64,000 bases of DNA from contig CALJGV010000010.1 in the NCBI GenBank assembly GCA_938075305.1, forward strand, positions 62,001 to 126,000. The letters run 5' to 3'. A program made the position numbers and the translations under genes. This DNA is from an uncultured bacterium. GTDB taxonomy: Bacteria > Planctomycetota > UBA1135 > GCA-002686595. Below, one piece after another: positions 1,735-8,495 of the stretch. Below the pieces are notes generated by a model. The model ran no database searches and was not told where the DNA came from. It worked only from the letters and a program-made list of their open reading frames with translations. The stretch's first letter is position 1; each line of letters begins with the position of its first letter.

Positions 1735-2058
1735 ATGGCGAACCCCGCCGCGACCTCGAAGAAGCCGATGGCACTCGGCATGGTCGAAACCAAAGGACTG
1801 GTCGGTGCCATCGAGGCTGCCGACGCCATGGTCAAGGCCGCGATGGTCGACCTCAGCGGACACGAGCGCGTCTCGGCTGGCCTCGTGACGTTCTTCGTCC
1901 AGGGCGAGGTCGGGGCCGTCAAGGCCGCGACCGACGCTGGCGCCGCCGCTGCGCGGCGCGTTGGCGAGCTCGTGAGCGTGCACGTGATCCCGCGCCCGCA
2001 CGACCAGCTGTGCAAGATCCTCCCGGAGATGCGTCCGACCTCGGGCGCCTCCAGCTGA
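1735..2058 (+). CDS. BMC-H hexameric shell protein 1
   Basis: 107-aa single BMC-domain protein (Pfam BMC family), the building block of hexagonal shell tiles. After a short N-terminal tail it has the canonical opening [23 protein letters not shown], visible in two adjoining parts ([11 protein letters not shown] and [12 protein letters not shown]), then [17 protein letters not shown] and a C-terminal VHVIPRPHD. The ATG at 1735 has an AGGAG at 1722-1726, 8 bases upstream, which decides this start over longer in-frame options. First gene of the operon; the aldehyde dehydrogenase starts 37 bases after its stop. The pore region reads ERVSAGL, unlike KSGAGL in the second BMC-H, so the two hexamers may differ in permeability (inference). 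Confidence 0.95.
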
Positions 2059-2095
2059 TCGACTCCGGGGGCCACCACGGCCTCCCTGGACGATC

Positions 2096-3982
2096 ATGAA
2101 GGGCCTCGATCCGGACCTGCGCGCCTTGCAAGAGGTGCGCGACGCCGTCTCCCGCGCGAAAGCCGCGCAGGTGGTGGCGGCTTCGTGGACCCAGGAGCAG
2201 ACGGATCGGGTCTGTGCTGCCATGGCGGCCGCGGCCGCGGCTGCGGCCCACGACCTCGCGCGGCTCGCCGTGGACGAGACGGGGATCGGGCGCGTCCACT
2301 ACAAGATCCTGAAGAACCTCTTCGGGTCCGAGGGGGTCTGGGACTCCATCCGGGACGAGCGGACCGTGGGCTTCGTGAAGCGCGACGAGCGCAGCGGGCT
2401 GCACGAGGTCGCGACGCCGGTGGGGGTGGTGGCCGGGATCGTCCCGACCACGAACCCGACGTCCACGACCATGTACAAGGCGCTGATCTCCGTGAAGGCG
2501 CGCAACGCGGTCGTGATCAGTCCGCATCCCCGGGCCAAGCGCTGCATCGCGGAGACCTGCGAGATCATCCGGCGCGCCATCGAGCGCGCGGGCGGCCCGC
2601 CGGACCTGGTGGTCTGCCTGAACCACCCGACCATCGAGTCCACCGGGGCGCTGATGAAGCACCGCGACGTGGCGGTCATCCTCTCTACCGGGGGCAGCGG
2701 CCTCGTACGCGCGGCGTACTCCAGCGGCAAGCCGGCCTATGGCGTGGGCCCCGGGAACGTGCCCTGCTACGTGGACCGGACCGCGGACCTCGGCAAGGCG
2801 GCCGAGGCGGTGGTGTCGAGCCAGAGCTTCGACAACGCCACGCTCTGCTGCTCGGAGCAGGCCCTCGTCCTCGACCGGCCCATCGCCCAGCGCTTTCTGG
2901 CCGAGATGCAGGCCCGGGGGGCGCACGTGGCCACCGACGCCGAGCGCAAGCGCCTGGAGGCCTACTGCAACCGCGGCGGCCAGATGAACGCCGACATCGT
3001 GGGGATCGACCCCTGGCGGGTTGCCGACCAGGCGGGGTTCCACGTGCCTCAGTCGACCACCGTGCTGCTCGCCTTCCAGGATGGCGTCGGACGGGACCAC
3101 CCCCTCTCCATCGAGATCCTCTGCCCGCTGCTCTCGGTGCACGTGGTGGACGGCTGGGAGGAGGGCTGCAAGGTCGCCAAGCAGCTGCTTCACTTCGGCG
3201 GGCTTGGGCACACCATGAGCGTCCACGCCATGGACCAGGGCGTGCTCGACTCCTTCTTCCTCCAGAAGCCGGCCAGCCGCATCGTGGCCAACGGGCCGTC
3301 GTCCATGGGCGCGGTGGGCTTCTCCACCAACCTCGTGCCGTCCTTCTCCCTGGGCTGTGGCCCCCAGGCGGGCAACATCACGAGCGACAACATCACCGCC
3401 CGCCACCTGGTCAACATCAAGCGGGTGGCGTTCCCCACGGGGGACTGGAAGGAGCGTGAGCGCAAGGCCCACGAGCGCGCCGCCGCCATGACGGGCGCTG
3501 GCATGCCCCGCGGGTCGATGATGGACGGAGACCCCGGCCACCGCGGTTCCACCGCCCCTGTCCCTGACCTGCCCGCCGCCCCCGCGTCGACCCCGCGCGT
3601 CCCGGGCGGGACCTCGTTCACGCCCCCCGCTCCTCCCGTGGTGAGCGCACGGCCCGCCGAGCCCGCGCACCGCCCCGCGCCCCCGGTCGTGAAGGCGCCC
3701 GCCGCGGCAGCCCCGGCCGGACCGGACCCCACCAAGGTGGGGGGCCTCGGCTCGGCGCCCCGCTTCACCGCGGACCGCCCCGGGGCGGCAGCGCCGTCGC
3801 CCGCCGTCCGCACCGCGGCGCCCAAGGCGGCGCCTCCGGCGCCGGGGCGGGCAGAGTCTGGGGCCTCCCTCTCTGCCTTCGAGATCGAGAAGATGCTCGA
3901 GAACGCCGGTGCTGGCTGCCCGTTGGGCCCCTGCCAGGGCTGCCCGCACCACGACGTCCAATCCCACACGTGCACCGCCTGA
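2096..3982 (+). CDS. Acylating aldehyde dehydrogenase of microcompartment type with C-terminal targeting helix and Cys/His tail
   Basis: 628 aa. Residues about 1-465 are a CoA-acylating aldehyde dehydrogenase core of the PduP/EutE/AdhE type: VGVVAGIVPTTNPTSTT, STGGSGLVRAAYSSGKP, YGVGPGNVP, and the catalytic loop FDNATLCCSEQ with C251 in the family's nucleophile position (C252 follows). Family role: aldehyde + CoA + NAD to acyl-CoA + NADH inside the compartment. Residues about 466-590 are a Pro/Ala-rich linker. Residues 593-607 (SAFEIEKMLENAGAG) look like an amphipathic encapsulation helix. The last 21 residues carry C608, C613, C616, C626 and H618, H619, H624, a possible metal-binding tail. 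It lies between the two BMC-H genes, which supports lumen targeting. The true substrate is unknown. Confidence 0.93.
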   Translation: MKGLDPDLRALQEVRDAVSRAKAAQVVAASWTQEQTDRVCAAMAAAAAAAAHDLARLAVDETGIGRVHYKILKNLFGSEGVWDSIRDERTVGFVKRDERSGLHEVATPVGVVAGIVPTTNPTSTTMYKALISVKARNAVVISPHPRAKRCIAETCEIIRRAIERAGGPPDLVVCLNHPTIESTGALMKHRDVAVILSTGGSGLVRAAYSSGKPAYGVGPGNVPCYVDRTADLGKAAEAVVSSQSFDNATLCCSEQALVLDRPIAQRFLAEMQARGAHVATDAERKRLEAYCNRGGQMNADIVGIDPWRVADQAGFHVPQSTTVLLAFQDGVGRDHPLSIEILCPLLSVHVVDGWEEGCKVAKQLLHFGGLGHTMSVHAMDQGVLDSFFLQKPASRIVANGPSSMGAVGFSTNLVPSFSLGCGPQAGNITSDNITARHLVNIKRVAFPTGDWKERERKAHERAAAMTGAGMPRGSMMDGDPGHRGSTAPVPDLPAAPASTPRVPGGTSFTPPAPPVVSARPAEPAHRPAPPVVKAPAAAAPAGPDPTKVGGLGSAPRFTADRPGAAAPSPAVRTAAPKAAPPAPGRAESGASLSAFEIEKMLENAGAGCPLGPCQGCPHHDVQSHTCTA

Positions 3983-4026
3983 CCGCGCGCGCGTCTTTCC
4001 CCTGAACCGAATCCTCAAGTCATCCC

Positions 4027-4308
4027 ATGGCTATTGAATCCCAGATCGCCCTCGGCCTGATCGAGACCAAGGGTCTCGTCGGCTCCGTCGAGGCCGCGGA
4101 CGCGATGTGCAAGGCCGCGAAGGTCACGCTCCTTTCCAAGGAGAAGTCCGGCGCGGGCCTCGTCACCGTGATGGTGCGCGGCGAAGTTGGCGCGGTGAAG
4201 GCCGCGACCGAAGCCGGCGCGGCCGCCGCCCGACGCGTCGGCGAGCTCGTCAGCGTGCACGTCATCCCGCGCCCGTCCACGGACCTCGAAGGCTACCTGC
4301 CCGAGTAG
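4027..4308 (+). CDS. BMC-H hexameric shell protein 2
   Basis: 93-aa single BMC domain: [20 protein letters not shown] near the start, [20 protein letters not shown] in the middle and [17 protein letters not shown] at the end. This is the standard BMC-H length. It resembles the first BMC-H but lacks its N-terminal extension and has a pore stretch KEKSGAGL with an extra Lys. It begins 44 bases after the aldehyde dehydrogenase and is followed within 7 bases by the next shell gene, so it is in the same operon. Expected role: main facet tile of the shell. Confidence 0.95.
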
Positions 4309-4315
4309 GCGGACC

Positions 4316-4966
4316 TTGTCCGGATCGCTTCATGCCGTGGAGCTGCGCGGGGCTGTGCATCTTGACCAGATGCAGCCGCAGCTCACCGCGATCAGCGCCC
4401 TGAAGTCGGACGGCTACTTCCCCGTGGAGGGGGAGAGCGCGTTCTGGCTGGAGGTGCGTCCCGGCATCGTCGTGAACCGGCTCCTGGACATCGCGTTGAA
4501 GCGCTGCGATGTCACGCCTGGAGCGCTCACCACCGAGCGCCACTACGGCAGCCTCGAGGTGCACGGCCCCGACCAGGGGCAGGTGCTCCAGGCCGGCGCC
4601 GAGGTGCTGAAGGCCATCGGGCGCAGCTGGGCGGACCAGCCCGCCCCTGAGGTGTTGACGGACGAGGTGATCCGGAAGGTCACGTCACACCACGCCAACC
4701 TCCTCAACCAGGCCCGCGGGGGCATGCTGGTCCTGGCGGACGACGCCCTCTACACCCTCGAGGTCTCGCCGGCCGTCCACGTGGTGCGCTGCGCCAACGA
4801 GGCGGAGAAGGCTGCGCCGATTCGAATCGCCTCCATGCGTACCACGGGTGCTGTGGGGCGGCTGCGGCTGGCTGGCGGTGACGCCGAAATCGACGAGGCT
4901 GTGCGCGCCGTGCGCCGCGCGCTCGAGACTGTTCGAGAGGACCCGATCCGGTCCGGGGGGCGCTGA
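4316..4966 (+). CDS. BMC-T tandem-domain (trimeric) shell protein 1
   Basis: 216 aa from TTG 4316; an in-frame GTG at 4337 would give the N-terminus usual for this group (ELRGAVHLDQMQPQL) and may be the true start. The first half (LDQMQPQLTA, VEVRPGIVVNRLLDIALKR-like strands, ERHYGSLEVHG) and the second half (ALYTLEVSPAVHVV, CANEAEKAAPIRIASMRTTG, AVGRLRLAGGDAEIDEAV) are two BMC-type domains. From memory this arrangement matches the larger trimeric shell proteins in Haliangium and PVM-type loci, some of which stack as double trimers with gated pores; stacking here is inference. It starts 7 bases after the BMC-H stop and ends 3 bases before the first pentamer gene. Confidence 0.85.
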   Translation: MSGSLHAVELRGAVHLDQMQPQLTAISALKSDGYFPVEGESAFWLEVRPGIVVNRLLDIALKRCDVTPGALTTERHYGSLEVHGPDQGQVLQAGAEVLKAIGRSWADQPAPEVLTDEVIRKVTSHHANLLNQARGGMLVLADDALYTLEVSPAVHVVRCANEAEKAAPIRIASMRTTGAVGRLRLAGGDAEIDEAVRAVRRALETVREDPIRSGGR

Positions 4967-4969
4967 GCC

Positions 4970-5293
4970 ATGTTCCTCGGACGCGTCGTCGGACAGGTCT
5001 GGGCCACCCGAGAGGTGGACGATCTCAGGGGCAAGCGCCTGCTCGTGGTCGAGGCCCTCGACGACGCCTCGGAGCCTGGGGCCCCGAAGGTCACCCCGGT
5101 GATCGCCGTGGATCCGGTCGGCGCCGACGTGGGCGAGCACGTCATGGTCGCCTTCGGAAAGGCCGCCCGCGTGGCCTGCGGCGGAGACGGAGACCTCGCG
5201 TACGAGGCCGCCATCGTGGGCATCGTGGACGACGTCCACGCCCCCGGAGCGCCCGAGTCCTGGAGGCCCGAGTCGGCCAGGGGACGAGCCTGA
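4970..5293 (+). CDS. BMC-P (EutN/CcmL) pentameric vertex protein 1
   Basis: 107-aa EutN/CcmL-family protein: GRVVGQVWATREVDDLRGKRLLVV at the start (seen as GRVVGQVWATR then LRGKRLLVVEAL), PVIAVDPVGADVGEHVMVA in the middle, and AYEAAIVGIVDDVH near the end. Members form pentamers that cap the icosahedral vertices of the shell. It has a 16-residue C-terminal tail (PESWRPESARGRA region) absent from the second copy. Its TGA overlaps the ATG of the second pentamer gene by one base, implying translational coupling. Confidence 0.94.
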   Translation: MFLGRVVGQVWATREVDDLRGKRLLVVEALDDASEPGAPKVTPVIAVDPVGADVGEHVMVAFGKAARVACGGDGDLAYEAAIVGIVDDVHAPGAPESWRPESARGRA

Positions 5294-5604
5294 TGCACGT
5301 CGCCACGGTCATCGGCTCCGTTTGGGCCACCAAGAAGGACTCCTCCCTGGACGGGCTGCGGCTGCTGGTCGTGCGTCCCTACACCACGGACGGCGAACCC
5401 TCCGCCGAGACCATGATCGCCGCCGATCCGATCGGCGCCGGCGAGGGCGAGCGCGTCCTCGTGGTGCACGGCCGCGCCGCGCGCCACGCCATCGGGAAGG
5501 GGCATGACATCGGCTTCCAGACGGCCATCGTGGGCATCATCGACAGGATGGAGCTCGCGGACGGACGGACCGTCGGGCCGCACGTCGACTTTGACGAGGG
5601 CTGA
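5293..5604 (+). CDS. BMC-P (EutN/CcmL) pentameric vertex protein 2
   Basis: 103-aa EutN/CcmL-family protein: HVATVIGSVWATKKDSSLDG, LRLLVVRPYTT, MIAADPIGAGEGERVLVVHG and FQTAIVGIIDRME. It is clearly paralogous to the preceding gene and overlaps it by one base. Known BMC loci often carry two or three pentamer genes. The 88-base gap that follows is the longest one inside the operon. Confidence 0.94.
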   Translation: MHVATVIGSVWATKKDSSLDGLRLLVVRPYTTDGEPSAETMIAADPIGAGEGERVLVVHGRAARHAIGKGHDIGFQTAIVGIIDRMELADGRTVGPHVDFDEG

Positions 5605-5692
5605 GACTTCGACGAGGGCCACAGGGCTCGCCAGGCAACCGCGCACAGAACACACGACTCCAGGATTCAGCGAACGCACGGGACGACCCGCC

Positions 5693-6289
5693 ATGCAGAA
5701 CAACGACCACAACCCGACGCTCTCCGGAGCGGAACTGCAGCCCGCCATCGCGCTGCTCGAGACCGCGAGCGTCGCGGCCGGGATCGAGATGACGGACGCG
5801 ATCCTCTGGGAGTCCGACATCGAGCTCCTCTTCGCGACGCCGGTCCAGCCCGGCAAGTACGTGGTGCTCTTCACCGGGAGCATCGAGGACCTGCGCAGCG
5901 CCCTGCGGCGCGGGGCCGAGGTCGCCCGCGGTGACCTCGTCGACCAGCTGCTCATTCCACAGGTGGAGGCCGGCGTCTGCGAGGCGCTTCGGCGCCAAGG
6001 CGAGCCGCTCCCTGCCGGCGAGCTGGACGCGGTGGGGGTCGTCGAGACCACCACGGTGGCCTCGAGCATCCTGGCCGCGGACATCGCCCTCAAGGAGGCG
6101 AGCGTCGACCTGATCGACCTGCGGGTGGCCAACGGGCTCGGCGGCAAGAGCTTCCTGACGATCACCGGCGAGGTGAGCGACGTGCGGAGCTCGGTGCAGG
6201 CCGCCGCGGGTAGCGCGGAATCCTCCGGGCGCCTCGCCCGGCACGTGGTCATCCCGCGTCCGCACCCCGAACTCTCGGCGCACCTCTGA
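5693..6289 (+). CDS. BMC-T tandem-domain (trimeric) shell protein 2
   Basis: 198 aa from ATG 5693, with two BMC domains: residues about 15-100 (PAIALLETASVAAGIEMTDA and a degenerate core) and about 112-198 (AVGVVETTTVASSILAADIA, ITGEVSDVRSSVQAAAG, HVVIPRPHPELSAHL). Tandem BMC proteins form trimers that look like hexamers. It is shorter and of a different subtype from the first BMC-T. PduT-like members bind an Fe-S cluster through a pore cysteine; the only Cys here (AGVCEALRR) lies at the end of domain 1, so that role is not supported. An in-frame upstream extension exists but lacks shell-protein character. Confidence 0.9.
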   Translation: MQNNDHNPTLSGAELQPAIALLETASVAAGIEMTDAILWESDIELLFATPVQPGKYVVLFTGSIEDLRSALRRGAEVARGDLVDQLLIPQVEAGVCEALRRQGEPLPAGELDAVGVVETTTVASSILAADIALKEASVDLIDLRVANGLGGKSFLTITGEVSDVRSSVQAAAGSAESSGRLARHVVIPRPHPELSAHL

Positions 6290-6315
6290 TCCCTCGAGGT
6301 CGGGCGGAGTGATCC

Positions 6316-6609
6316 ATGGCGTCGAGGAAGAAGCTCGTGACGGAGGCGGACGTGCGGCGCATGGCGTCCGGCACGCGCGAGCTTGTCCTTGGCCCCGAAC
6401 GGATCGCGACCCCCGCGGCCCTCGACCTCGCCTTCTCCAGGGGGATGAAGGTGATCTACGCGGAGGCCGACGCGGCGTCTCCGCTCCCCAGCGACCTCTG
6501 GTCGCGCATCAAGTCACGGGACGGCACCTACGTCGTCCAGGTCGAGAGCGGGCGGGCCACCGTCACGCGGCTCGGTCCGGCCGGCCCCGAGCCCATCGGC
6601 GGAGAGTGA
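6316..6609 (+). CDS. 97-aa microcompartment-associated protein sharing a domain with the downstream ACT protein
   Basis: Small soluble protein with no recognised family assignment. Residues 5-50 read K-LVTEADVRRM-x-G-x-ELVLGPERIATPAALDLAF-x-x-GMKVI, closely similar to residues 2-50 of the next gene ([29 protein letters not shown]); both are followed by a PLP triplet. A similar TEaDVR...G...TPaA...A...G pattern is recalled from the N-termini of some BMC-associated enzymes such as EutT, but this was not checked. The C-terminal half (DLWSRIKSRDGTYVVQVESG) is predicted beta-rich. It starts 26 bases after the shell gene and ends 7 bases before the ACT gene. A scaffold or cargo-adaptor role is possible but unproven. 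Confidence 0.8.
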   Translation: MASRKKLVTEADVRRMASGTRELVLGPERIATPAALDLAFSRGMKVIYAEADAASPLPSDLWSRIKSRDGTYVVQVESGRATVTRLGPAGPEPIGGE

Positions 6610-6616
6610 ACGAGCT

Positions 6617-7117
6617 ATGACGAAGAGATTCCTGACAGCAGAGGACGTCCGCCGCCTCGGCGGCCCCGAGATCCTCCTCGAAGAGGGGACCGTGGTGACG
6701 CCGCAGGCCGCGGAGGCCGCGGCCACCGCTGGAGTGCGCCTCATCGGGCCCGCCGGTGCGTACGCGCCGCCGCTCCCCGATCGGGGGCCAGATGCGGCGC
6801 GGGCCAAGGCGACCCTGCCCCATCTCCCCGAGCCCTCGACCACCGACGGCATCGGGCTCGTGGTGACCGTCGTTGGGCGCAACCGTCCAGGCGTGCTGGC
6901 CGAGATCACCGCCGCGCTCGCCTCCCACGAGTGCGACGTCGCGGACATCAGCCAGCGCAACGTGGGCGGCTACTTCCACACGGTGTTCACGTGCGCGGTG
7001 CCCCCCGGGCGAGACTTCGGTTCGATCAAGGACAGCCTCCAGTGCCTTGGCGGCGAGGGCGACTACGTCGTCCGCGTCATGCACGAGAGCGTCTTCCGCT
7101 TCATGCACCGCGTCTAG
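6617..7117 (+). CDS. ACT-domain (UPF0237-type) protein with N-terminal microcompartment-linked domain
   Basis: 166 aa. Residues about 78-166 form an ACT domain of the UPF0237 kind: [39 protein letters not shown], then [20 protein letters not shown]. Free-standing UPF0237 proteins are about 90 aa and sit next to UPF0210 genes in many bacteria, exactly as here. The extra first 70 residues ([29 protein letters not shown]) match the preceding 97-aa protein and are not part of ordinary UPF0237 proteins as I know them. ACT domains usually bind small ligands such as amino acids, so a regulatory role on the UPF0210 partner is likely. It ends 13 bases before the UPF0210 start. Confidence 0.88.
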
Positions 7118-7130
7118 CGGAGAGTTCACG

Positions 7131-8495
7131 ATGCCGTTCACTGATCACGAGATCCTCGAGACCGTCAGGATGTTCGAGCTGGAGACGTTCGACATCCGAA
7201 CGACCACGCTCGGCATCAACTTGCTCGACTGTGCTGACCCCGATCTCGAGTCCTCCTGCGAGAAGGTGTACGCCAAGATCGTCCACCATGGCCGCAACCT
7301 CGTGGAGACGGCGGGCAGCATCGAGTCGGACCTGGGCATCCCGATCATCAACAAGCGGGTCGCCACCACGCCGATCGCGCTGGTCGCGGCGGCCTCCGGC
7401 TCCAAGGACCTCGTCCCCTTCGCGCGCGCGATGGACGCGGCCGCGGAGGAGATCGGGATCGACTACATCGGCGGCTACACCGCGTACGTGCACAAGGGGT
7501 ACTCCAACGCGGACCACGCTCTTATGGAGTCCATCCCGGAGGCGCTCGCGTCCACTTCGCGGGTCTGCTCGTCGGTGTCCCTGGCGACCACCAAGGCCGG
7601 GATCAACATGGACGCGGTGTCCCACTTCTCCAAGGTGGTCCTCGACACCGCGCGTCTCACCGCCAGCGAGGGCGGCCTGGGCTGCGCGAAGCTGGTCTGC
7701 TTCTCCAACCCGGTGGAGGACAACCCGTTCATCGCCGGAGCCCACATCGGCATCGGTGAGCCCGAGACGGTCCTCAATGTCGGCGTGTCCGGTCCGGGCG
7801 TCGTGCGCTCCGCGTTGGAGCGCCTCGGCCCCGAGGCGGACCTGCTCGCGGTGGCGGAGACCATCAAGAGGACCGCCTTCAAGATCACCCGCATGGGGGA
7901 GCTGGTGGGCCGAGAGGCCGCGCGCCGCCTCGGTACGGTGTTCGGGATCGTCGATGTCTCCCTCGCGCCGACGCCGGCGGTGGGGGACTCGGTGGCTGAC
8001 ATCCTCGAGCTGATCGGCGTCGAGCGCACCGGGGCTCCGGGCACCACCGCCGCCCTCGCGCTGCTGACCGACGCGGTCAAGAAGGGGGGCGCCATGGCTT
8101 CCTCCAGCGTTGGCGGCCTCTCCGGGGCGTTCATCCCGGTTTCCGAGGACGCGGGGATGATCCAGGCCGTGGCGGACGGCGCCCTTAGCCTCGCGAAGCT
8201 CGAGGCCATGACGACCGTGTGTTCGGTGGGCCTGGACATGATCGCGGTCCCCGGAGACACCAGCCAGGCGACGCTCGCGGGCATCATCGCGGATGAGATG
8301 GCGATCGGCATGGTCAACCAGAAGACCACCGCCGTGCGCGCGATCCCGGTGCCCGGCAAGGCGCCCGGGGAGACCCACGACTGGGGCGGGCTTCTGGGTA
8401 CGGCGATCGTGCAGGACCCCGGGAGGTTCGGGAGCGACGTCTTCCACGCCCGCGGCGGGCGGATCCCTGCGCCGCTCCAGAGCTATCGGAACTGA
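7131..8495 (+). CDS. UPF0210/DUF711 family protein (PFL-like fold), candidate signature enzyme of the microcompartment
   Basis: 454 aa from ATG 7131 with GGAGAG at 7119-7124; upstream in-frame ATGs lie inside the ACT gene and are rejected. It matches the UPF0210 family along its full usual length: [143 protein letters not shown] and the ending [13 protein letters not shown]. The reaction is unknown; a structure of a pneumococcal member is recalled as having a pyruvate-formate-lyase-like barrel. There is no glycyl radical motif and no radical-SAM activase in the window. As the last gene of the BMC operon and its only enzyme besides the dehydrogenase, it is the best candidate for producing the aldehyde (inference). 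Confidence 0.92.

What the first reader, a model, noticed from the sequence alone, without database searches (positions are those of the whole stretch)
1735..8495. Microcompartment operon whose only candidate signature enzyme is a UPF0210/DUF711 protein
Seen: ten closely packed genes with a full shell set (2 BMC-H, 2 tandem BMC, 2 BMC-P), an acylating aldehyde dehydrogenase and, at the end, an ACT (UPF0237) plus UPF0210 pair. Known: UPF0237 and UPF0210 are often adjacent in other bacteria, UPF0210 has no assigned reaction, and a member is recalled to have a pyruvate-formate-lyase-like barrel. Inference: UPF0210 makes an aldehyde consumed by the dehydrogenase inside the shell. This would be a metabolosome with an unknown substrate and could give the first function for UPF0210. 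I do not recall a described BMC class with this signature but cannot exclude one.
Basis: partly seen in the sequence, partly recalled or inferred. Interest (0 to 1): 0.92.

Follow-up and report, generated by a model that had tools for sequence, protein, structure and literature searches.

The report
Shell-docked UPF0210 pair in a metabolosome
A Planctomycetota bacterium carries genes for a protein-shelled organelle whose cluster includes UPF0210, a widespread protein of unknown job; its partner protein carries what looks like a shell-docking tag, but the reactive aldehyde that the organelle handles more probably comes from ordinary sugar-phosphate aldolases encoded elsewhere in the genome.

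Summary
In detail: ten packed + strand genes (window 1735-8495) encode 2 BMC-H, 2 tandem BMC, 2 BMC-P, an acylating aldehyde dehydrogenase, a 97-aa protein, an ACT protein and UPF0210/DUF711. The link recurs: shell genes lie within 3 kb of DUF711 in 31 of 35 regions read from the window's family (two of the four misses are contig breaks), and beside it in 13 of 35 sampled Planctomycetota genomes of other families that have it. The ACT protein has an added N-terminal module that matches the start of EutQ, whose published N-terminus docks cargo to Eut shells; 74 of 76 ACT ORFs in non-BMC loci lack it.

UPF0210 is not the only signature candidate. The same genome holds BMC-P genes with a class II aldolase, and an adjacent RpiB-DeoC pair, the catalogued signature of SPU microcompartments; the RpiB bears part of the same module. 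Five relatives keep shell, dehydrogenase and all three sugar enzymes yet lack UPF0210. Best reading: a scattered SPU/HO-like metabolosome that oxidises acetaldehyde from DeoC, with UPF0210-ACT as recurrent, probably shell-docked accessory cargo of unknown reaction. New variant of a known kind.

The parts
1735..2058 (+). BMC-H shell protein 1
   Evidence: PF00936 93.7 bits
2096..3982 (+). CoA-acylating aldehyde dehydrogenase with a long C-terminal extension (helix 'LSAFEIEKMLENAG' that by eye reads like an encapsulation peptide, then a Cys-rich tail)
   Evidence: PF00171; TIGR02518 515 bits; closest solved structure acetaldehyde dehydrogenase 5j78 E 8.2e-145; Cys alignment and tails
4027..4308 (+). 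BMC-H shell protein 2
   Evidence: PF00936 96.7 bits
4316..4966 (+). CcmP-like tandem-BMC shell protein (start codon uncertain)
   Evidence: NF053796 CcmP E 4.8e-55
4970..5293 (+). BMC-P vertex protein 1
   Evidence: PF03319 82.7 bits
5293..5604 (+). BMC-P vertex protein 2
   Evidence: PF03319 97.0 bits
5693..6289 (+). PduT-like tandem-BMC shell protein
   Evidence: PF00936 two stretches, TIGR02526 E 2.6e-32
6316..6609 (+). 97-aa protein; first ~50 aa are the EutQ-N-like module
   Evidence: weak match to C-end of TIGR02536; module hit E 5.7e-17 (the protein was in the training set)
6617..7117 (+). ACT (UPF0237-type) protein with added N-terminal module
   Evidence: PF13740 41.7 bits; module hit E 4.0e-18 (in the training set); AF2 pLDDT 82, ACT fold like 1zpv
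6617..6751 (+). EutQ-N-like module of the ACT protein (residues 1-45), proposed shell-docking tag
   Evidence: EutQ function from PMC12487888
7131..8495 (+). UPF0210/DUF711 protein (RNR/PFL-type barrel, reaction unknown)
   Evidence: PF05167 597 bits; 2ha9 51% identity in the Foldseek alignment

Best explanation
The cluster is the main shell locus of a metabolosome whose genes lie in three places of the genome, closest in make-up to the catalogued SPU and HO types. Probable flow: deoxyribose-5-phosphate is cleaved by DeoC (locus C) to acetaldehyde and glyceraldehyde-3-phosphate, a class II aldolase (locus B) may add a second aldehyde, and the acylating dehydrogenase of the window turns the aldehyde into acyl-CoA inside the shell. 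The ACT protein has gained a EutQ-N-like module that should dock it to the shell, and it brings UPF0210, its usual genetic partner, with it. UPF0210 is then accessory cargo that performs the reaction it performs elsewhere, most likely on a metabolite of this pathway (sugar phosphate or acyl-CoA), possibly under amino-acid control by the ACT domain. Shown by computation: gene content, recurrence, satellites, the module. Inferred: encapsulation, pathway direction, any UPF0210-ACT contact, sameness of the reaction. Not known: the UPF0210 reaction.
For: G000 holds locus B (BMC-P genes C28:15849-16721 beside its only PF00596, C28:15232-15756, 155.3 bits) and locus C (RpiB C33:57176-57589 and DeoC C33:56228-56833, adjacent). 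DeoC is over the TIGR00126 cut-off (275.6 vs 117.3). A whole-genome search with the module (150 of 179 first-look candidates scored) finds three G000 proteins: ACT, 97-aa protein, and an RpiB that matches positions 11-47 of 50, E 1.4e-7. In family f1 PF00596 of at least 137 bits is in 35 of 37 genomes, in 34 on one contig with BMC-P genes listed outside the main locus, within 7 kb (list was cut); RpiB in 29 of 37, within 1.4 kb of DeoC in 28. All 15 non-f1 genomes with module-ACT and DUF711 found in the phylum sample have a satellite: 10 a class II aldolase within 3.5 kb of BMC-P, 5 an RpiB/BMC-P/DeoC cluster. The module HMM hits E. coli EutQ (E 1.7e-9) and EutT (3.2e-7) among 17 Eut proteins, the other 15 at 0.04 or worse; among 31,571 ORFs 2.6e-6 and 4e-4. 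EutQ 1-99 suffices to target GFP to Eut BMCs and residues 9-41 act on the shell (PMC12487888 section 9 part 1).
Against: Two Bacillota ACT proteins (L081, L110) carry the module beside ileS and DUF711 with no shell gene in the stretch held, so the module may not be BMC-exclusive. 8 of 37 f1 genomes show no RpiB and 4 of these no DeoC either (many genomes are incomplete); none of the six f47 genomes has an RpiB-DeoC pair. PduL-type phosphotransacylase was found in 0 of 37 genomes (23 of f1, 14 of the order), so CoA recycling is unexplained. The class II aldolase passes no NCBIfam cut-off among the 25 models shown, so its substrate is open. Encapsulation of UPF0210 itself is not shown. Six positions of UPF0210 differ between BMC and other members at 75% on both sides, none at 85%, so a shifted reaction is not excluded.
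Confidence: 0.68

Rival explanations
1. One reading: UPF0210 is the signature enzyme and makes the aldehyde oxidised by the AldDH inside the shell.
For: Same operon, tight spacing, recurrent; RNR/PFL-type fold, a fold class that (recalled) includes aldehyde-forming radical enzymes.
Against: Five BMC genomes have the AldDH and shell without UPF0210 and with the aldolases; no radical glycine found in SP0239 according to PMC4390871; the near-invariant residues are shared with lineages that have no shell gene beside it; DeoC and class II aldolase present.
Confidence: 0.12
2. UPF0210 recycles CoA: a PFL-like barrel that moves the acetyl group of acetyl-CoA to an acceptor, standing in for the missing PduL.
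For: PF06130 found in 0 of 37 genomes searched; PFL/RNR superfamily fold.
Against: Three order-mates with the BMC (G039, G043, G047) lack both PduL and UPF0210, so something else must do it there; other phosphotransacylases (PF01515) were not searched; no CoA site identified.
Confidence: 0.13
3. The ACT-UPF0210 pair is a ligand sensor that reports a pathway metabolite and tunes the compartment; UPF0210 is not catalytically needed.
For: ACT domains commonly bind amino acids and regulate (recalled); module-ACT would sit at the shell; the pair is missing in 5 BMC genomes.
Against: UPF0210 keeps 110 invariant columns in 33 diverse sequences, as an enzyme would.
Confidence: 0.12
4. Chance adjacency: UPF0210 is cytosolic and rides in the operon.
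For: DUF711 is detached from the operon in G027 and G034; an incidental neighbour case exists (L082).
Against: 31 of 35 f1 regions and 13 of 35 non-f1 genomes linked; ACT partner altered by the module in BMC loci; DUF711 in 0 of 24 order-mates outside the family.
Confidence: 0.08

Closest known systems
SPU (sugar phosphate utilization) BMC type, PMC8217296
   Same: DeoC (PF01791) and RpiB (PF02502), both with added N-terminal parts here, AldDH of the acetaldehyde kind; in five related genomes they lie in one cluster with BMC-P genes
   Different: Here the signature pair lies on a separate contig from shell and AldDH; ACT and UPF0210 added; not checked against the catalogue's HMMs or locus table
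HO (Haliangium ochraceum) BMC type, PMC8217296
   Same: BMC-P triplet, CcmP-like BMC-T, satellite locus of BMC-P with an aldolase, DeoC elsewhere in the genome
   Different: ACT and UPF0210 cargo; the HO satellite is described with two BMC-P; AldDH clade not tested
EutQ N-terminal region (PMC12487888)
   Same: The module aligns to E. coli EutQ residues 2-52, which span the H1/H2 region (9-41) reported to act on the shell
   Different: Fused to ACT, RpiB or the 97-aa protein, not to a cupin; a counterpart of EutQ's H3/H4 cargo-binding part was not looked for
UPF0210 protein SP0239, PDB 2ha9
   Same: Same family, 51% identity in the Foldseek alignment, same fold
   Different: 2ha9 is from Streptococcus pneumoniae; the flanks of the Bacillota members held here show no shell genes except the incidental L082

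Membership tests
SPU-type BMC | DeoC (PF01791) and RpiB (PF02502) as signature enzymes | tested here: met
   G000:C33, adjacent; DeoC over TIGR00126 cut-off; RpiB over PF02502 cut-off
SPU-type BMC | signature enzymes in the same locus as shell genes | tested here: not met
   In the window genome they lie on C33, shell genes on C10 and C28; met in 5 genomes of other families. So it is not filed as SPU, only as SPU-like
SPU-type BMC | AldDH and shell proteins in SPU clades of the catalogue trees | not testable with these tools
   Catalogue HMMs and supplementary data not available
HO-type BMC | BMC-P triplet | tested here: met
   G000:C28, three BMC-P frames in L178
HO-type BMC | CcmP- or CsoS1D-like BMC-T | tested here: met
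   NF053796 CcmP E 4.8e-55, below that model's cut-off
HO-type BMC | AldDH nearest SPU5/SPU7 | not tested
   No reference sequences fetched
Glycyl radical enzyme (GRM-type signature) | radical glycine site and an activase | tested here: inconclusive
   No activase among the ten genes; absence of a radical glycine in SP0239 is from PMC4390871, not retested
UPF0210/DUF711 | PF05167 over gathering score | tested here: met
   597.1 bits vs 25
EutQ-N-like module | significant profile match to EutQ/EutT N-termini not used in training | tested here: met
   E 1.7e-9 and 3.2e-7 among 17 Eut proteins; 2.6e-6 and 4e-4 among 31,571 ORFs
EutQ-N-like module | binds the shell | not testable with these tools
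   reported for EutQ only

The most novel reading that the evidence does not exclude
UPF0210 is a genuine third enzyme of a nucleic-acid-sugar metabolosome: an RNR-superfamily barrel, docked to the shell by its ACT subunit, that converts a ribose-type phosphate (or another nucleic-acid sugar) into a substrate for DeoC or the class II aldolase. This would be the first function for UPF0210, and the same reaction would run without a shell in Bacillota and archaea.
Probability: 0.15. Interest if true: 0.88.

Novelty: new variant of a known kind. Interest (0 to 1): 0.6.

Why it matters
UPF0210 is found from archaea to Bacillota, has a solved structure (2ha9) and no reaction that I found in print. 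Recurrent pairing with a metabolosome whose chemistry can be guessed (nucleic-acid sugar, aldehyde, acyl-CoA), plus an ACT partner that has gained a EutQ-like module, narrows the substrates to a list that can be assayed. It also shows that a reader of one locus can take a scattered SPU/HO-like metabolosome for a new class, and it suggests that EutQ-N-like modules mark cargo in compartments other than Eut.

Tried and rejected
Conserved neighbours of UPF0210 outside BMC loci: only ACT is common (54 of 84 loci at -1); no functional hint. Class-specific residues of UPF0210: one search found none at 85%, but three non-BMC rows had been labelled BMC there; with labels mended (59 BMC, 92 other rows) still none at 85%, six at 75% (119, 205, 313, 418, 426, 428), which may only reflect that the BMC rows are Planctomycetota. 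L082 (Clostridiales): EUT-type operon several kb upstream of mscL-ACT-DUF711, judged incidental. Genes inside the L173 operon were read as sequence only and look unrelated to a BMC; not scanned. Glutamate dehydrogenase upstream of AldDH in f47 loci: could recycle NADH, not tested. Structure search of UPF0210: 2ha9 is strong; next is anaerobic RNR (8p2s, E 1e-3, TM 0.40), so no active-site transfer was made. PMC4207490 (passages) holds neither 'ACT domain' nor PF05167. Searches for SPU with deoxyribose found no paper.
Full report
What is there. The ten genes exist as described. The AldDH is of the acetaldehyde/AdhE kind with the catalytic Cys kept. One tandem BMC is CcmP-like, the other PduT-like.

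Recurrence of the UPF0210-shell link. In 61 genomes around the window (37 of its family f1, 24 of the same order) DUF711 is in 36 of 37 f1 genomes and 0 of 24 others. Of 35 f1 regions that I read round DUF711, a shell gene lies within 3 kb in 31; G013 and G033 end at a contig break, and in G027 and G034 DUF711 lies apart. In a sample of 392 genomes of the phylum, 54 have DUF711 over the cut-off: 19 of f1 and 35 of other families. Of these 35, 13 have shell genes in the stretch that I read; 2 more (G089, G232) have module-ACT and DUF711 without a shell gene in that stretch, and shell genes on another contig; 20 show no shell gene, one of them (G151) on a contig of only 3.8 kb. In the 80 best genome-contig loci, 8 show shell genes of this operon, L035 is a 4.5-kb contig with only the last three genes, L082 is an incidental EUT neighbour, and 70 show none. 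Several of these 80 seem to be the same genomes as in the other searches (equal contig lengths). The tree of 110 DUF711 rows (quick method) clusters the 21 BMC rows: 2 changes of the label, against 13.1 in shuffles; L168 (the second DUF711 of G083) and the two f52 rows, with no shell gene in the stretch read, branch among them.

The ACT partner is altered. In BMC loci the ACT protein starts with a 45-50 residue module of the form RxLTxxDV...TxVTPxAxxxAxxxGV, which also opens the 97-aa protein. A profile of it hits 57 of 58 ACT ORFs in BMC loci (partly circular, as many were in its training set and some genomes are held twice; the miss is cut by a contig end) and 2 of 76 ACT ORFs in non-BMC loci. 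A search of 31 whole genomes with an alignment of it (for many genomes, G000 too, only 150 of the first-look candidates were scored) finds in G000 three proteins: ACT, the 97-aa protein and an RpiB, the last a partial match. The profile hits E. coli EutQ residues 2-52 and EutT residues 2-47, neither in training; among 31,571 ORFs their E-values are 2.6e-6 and 4e-4. For EutQ of Salmonella LT2, PMC12487888 (passages and part 1 of 2 of section 9) reports that residues 1-99 suffice to bring GFP to the Eut compartment, that H1/H2 (9-41) act on the shell and H3/H4 (62-99) on cargo. The shell-docking reading of our module is an inference from that. AlphaFold2 (9 sequences, pLDDT 82) gives helix-strand-helix-strand for the module, then a weak linker and an ACT fold nearest to 1zpv. 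Against exclusivity: L081 and L110 (Bacillota) carry the module on an ACT between ileS and DUF711 with no shell gene in the stretch held.

The signature enzymes. Five genomes with a homologous shell-AldDH locus lack DUF711: f1 members G024 and G305 and order-mates G039, G043, G047. Their loci as read also lack ACT and in-locus BMC-P; the CcmP-like BMC-T was not seen in G305. A genome-wide module search covered only G039, G043 and G047 of the five: it gave RpiB in each, plus the small protein in G039, and no ACT. These genomes led to two satellites. Locus B: BMC-P genes (three in G000) beside a class II aldolase; in G000 it is the only PF00596. Locus C: RpiB with an EP-like helix (by eye) and the module, next to DeoC with an N-terminal extension; DeoC passes its equivalog cut-off. 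All five DUF711-less genomes have such an aldolase (149.9-157.8 bits; in G024 7 kb from the BMC-P genes) and adjacent RpiB-DeoC. G419 (f1) has neither shell nor DUF711. In the 15 non-f1 genomes, 10 have the class II aldolase near BMC-P and 5 (G078, G083, G104, G124, G175) have RpiB, two or three BMC-P and DeoC in one cluster. The catalogue PMC8217296 (outline, sections 8 and 10 and passages; [quoted passage not shown] So the aldehyde has ordinary candidate sources, and the window's locus looks like the shell part of an SPU/HO-like system.

What UPF0210 may do. It is in the RNR/PFL barrel superfamily: PMC4390871 (passages only) groups SP0239 there and found no radical glycine; Foldseek with our model gives 2ha9, then anaerobic RNR weakly. 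Cys146 and Cys364 are invariant in 33 sequences; in 151 rows they are kept in 145 and 147. No position differs between BMC and other members at 85% on both sides, six do at 75%; that the BMC recruited the ordinary reaction is an inference. PduL was found in 0 of 37 genomes, which leaves CoA recycling open, one rival role. My ranking of roles (accessory sugar-phosphate or acyl-CoA step, CoA recycling, sensor, aldehyde maker) is judgement, not measurement.

Limits. Genome-scale searches ended at their cap (12 of 12). Many genomes are MAGs of 65-95% completeness, so single absences are weak. Encapsulation, physical contact and reaction are untested. Absence from print rests over open-licence PMC text only.

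Noticed in passing
L081:9529-9981 and L110:9436-9903: Two Bacillota ACT proteins between ileS and DUF711 carry the EutQ-N-like module with no shell gene in the stretch held; whether their genomes have a BMC is unknown.
   Followed up: partly
window 2096-3982 (C-terminus): The AldDH ends in a Cys-rich tail (CPLGPCQGCPHHD...C) after the EP-like helix; the other f1 AldDHs shown have it, L232 (f37) has a looser one, most other families shown there do not.
   Followed up: no
L150:15543-17171 and five other f47 loci: A gene cluster of six f47 loci upstream of the AldDH; the one member scanned is a glutamate dehydrogenase-type protein (PF00208/PF02812). It could recycle NADH or link the BMC to amino acids.
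   Followed up: partly
L188:10874-13655: An HD-domain response regulator and an MFS transporter follow DUF711 here; their clusters occur in 20 and 17 of the 44 loci compared.
   Followed up: partly
L178:9095-9802 (G000:C28): The class II aldolase beside the BMC-P genes scores best, but below cut-off, with 3-oxo-tetronate 4-phosphate decarboxylase; its substrate is open.
   Followed up: partly
L174-L177 (family f32): Four divergent Planctomycetota DUF711 proteins branch far from the rest in the tree; the four rows of 151 that have Gly in place of Cys364 may be these, not checked.
   Followed up: no
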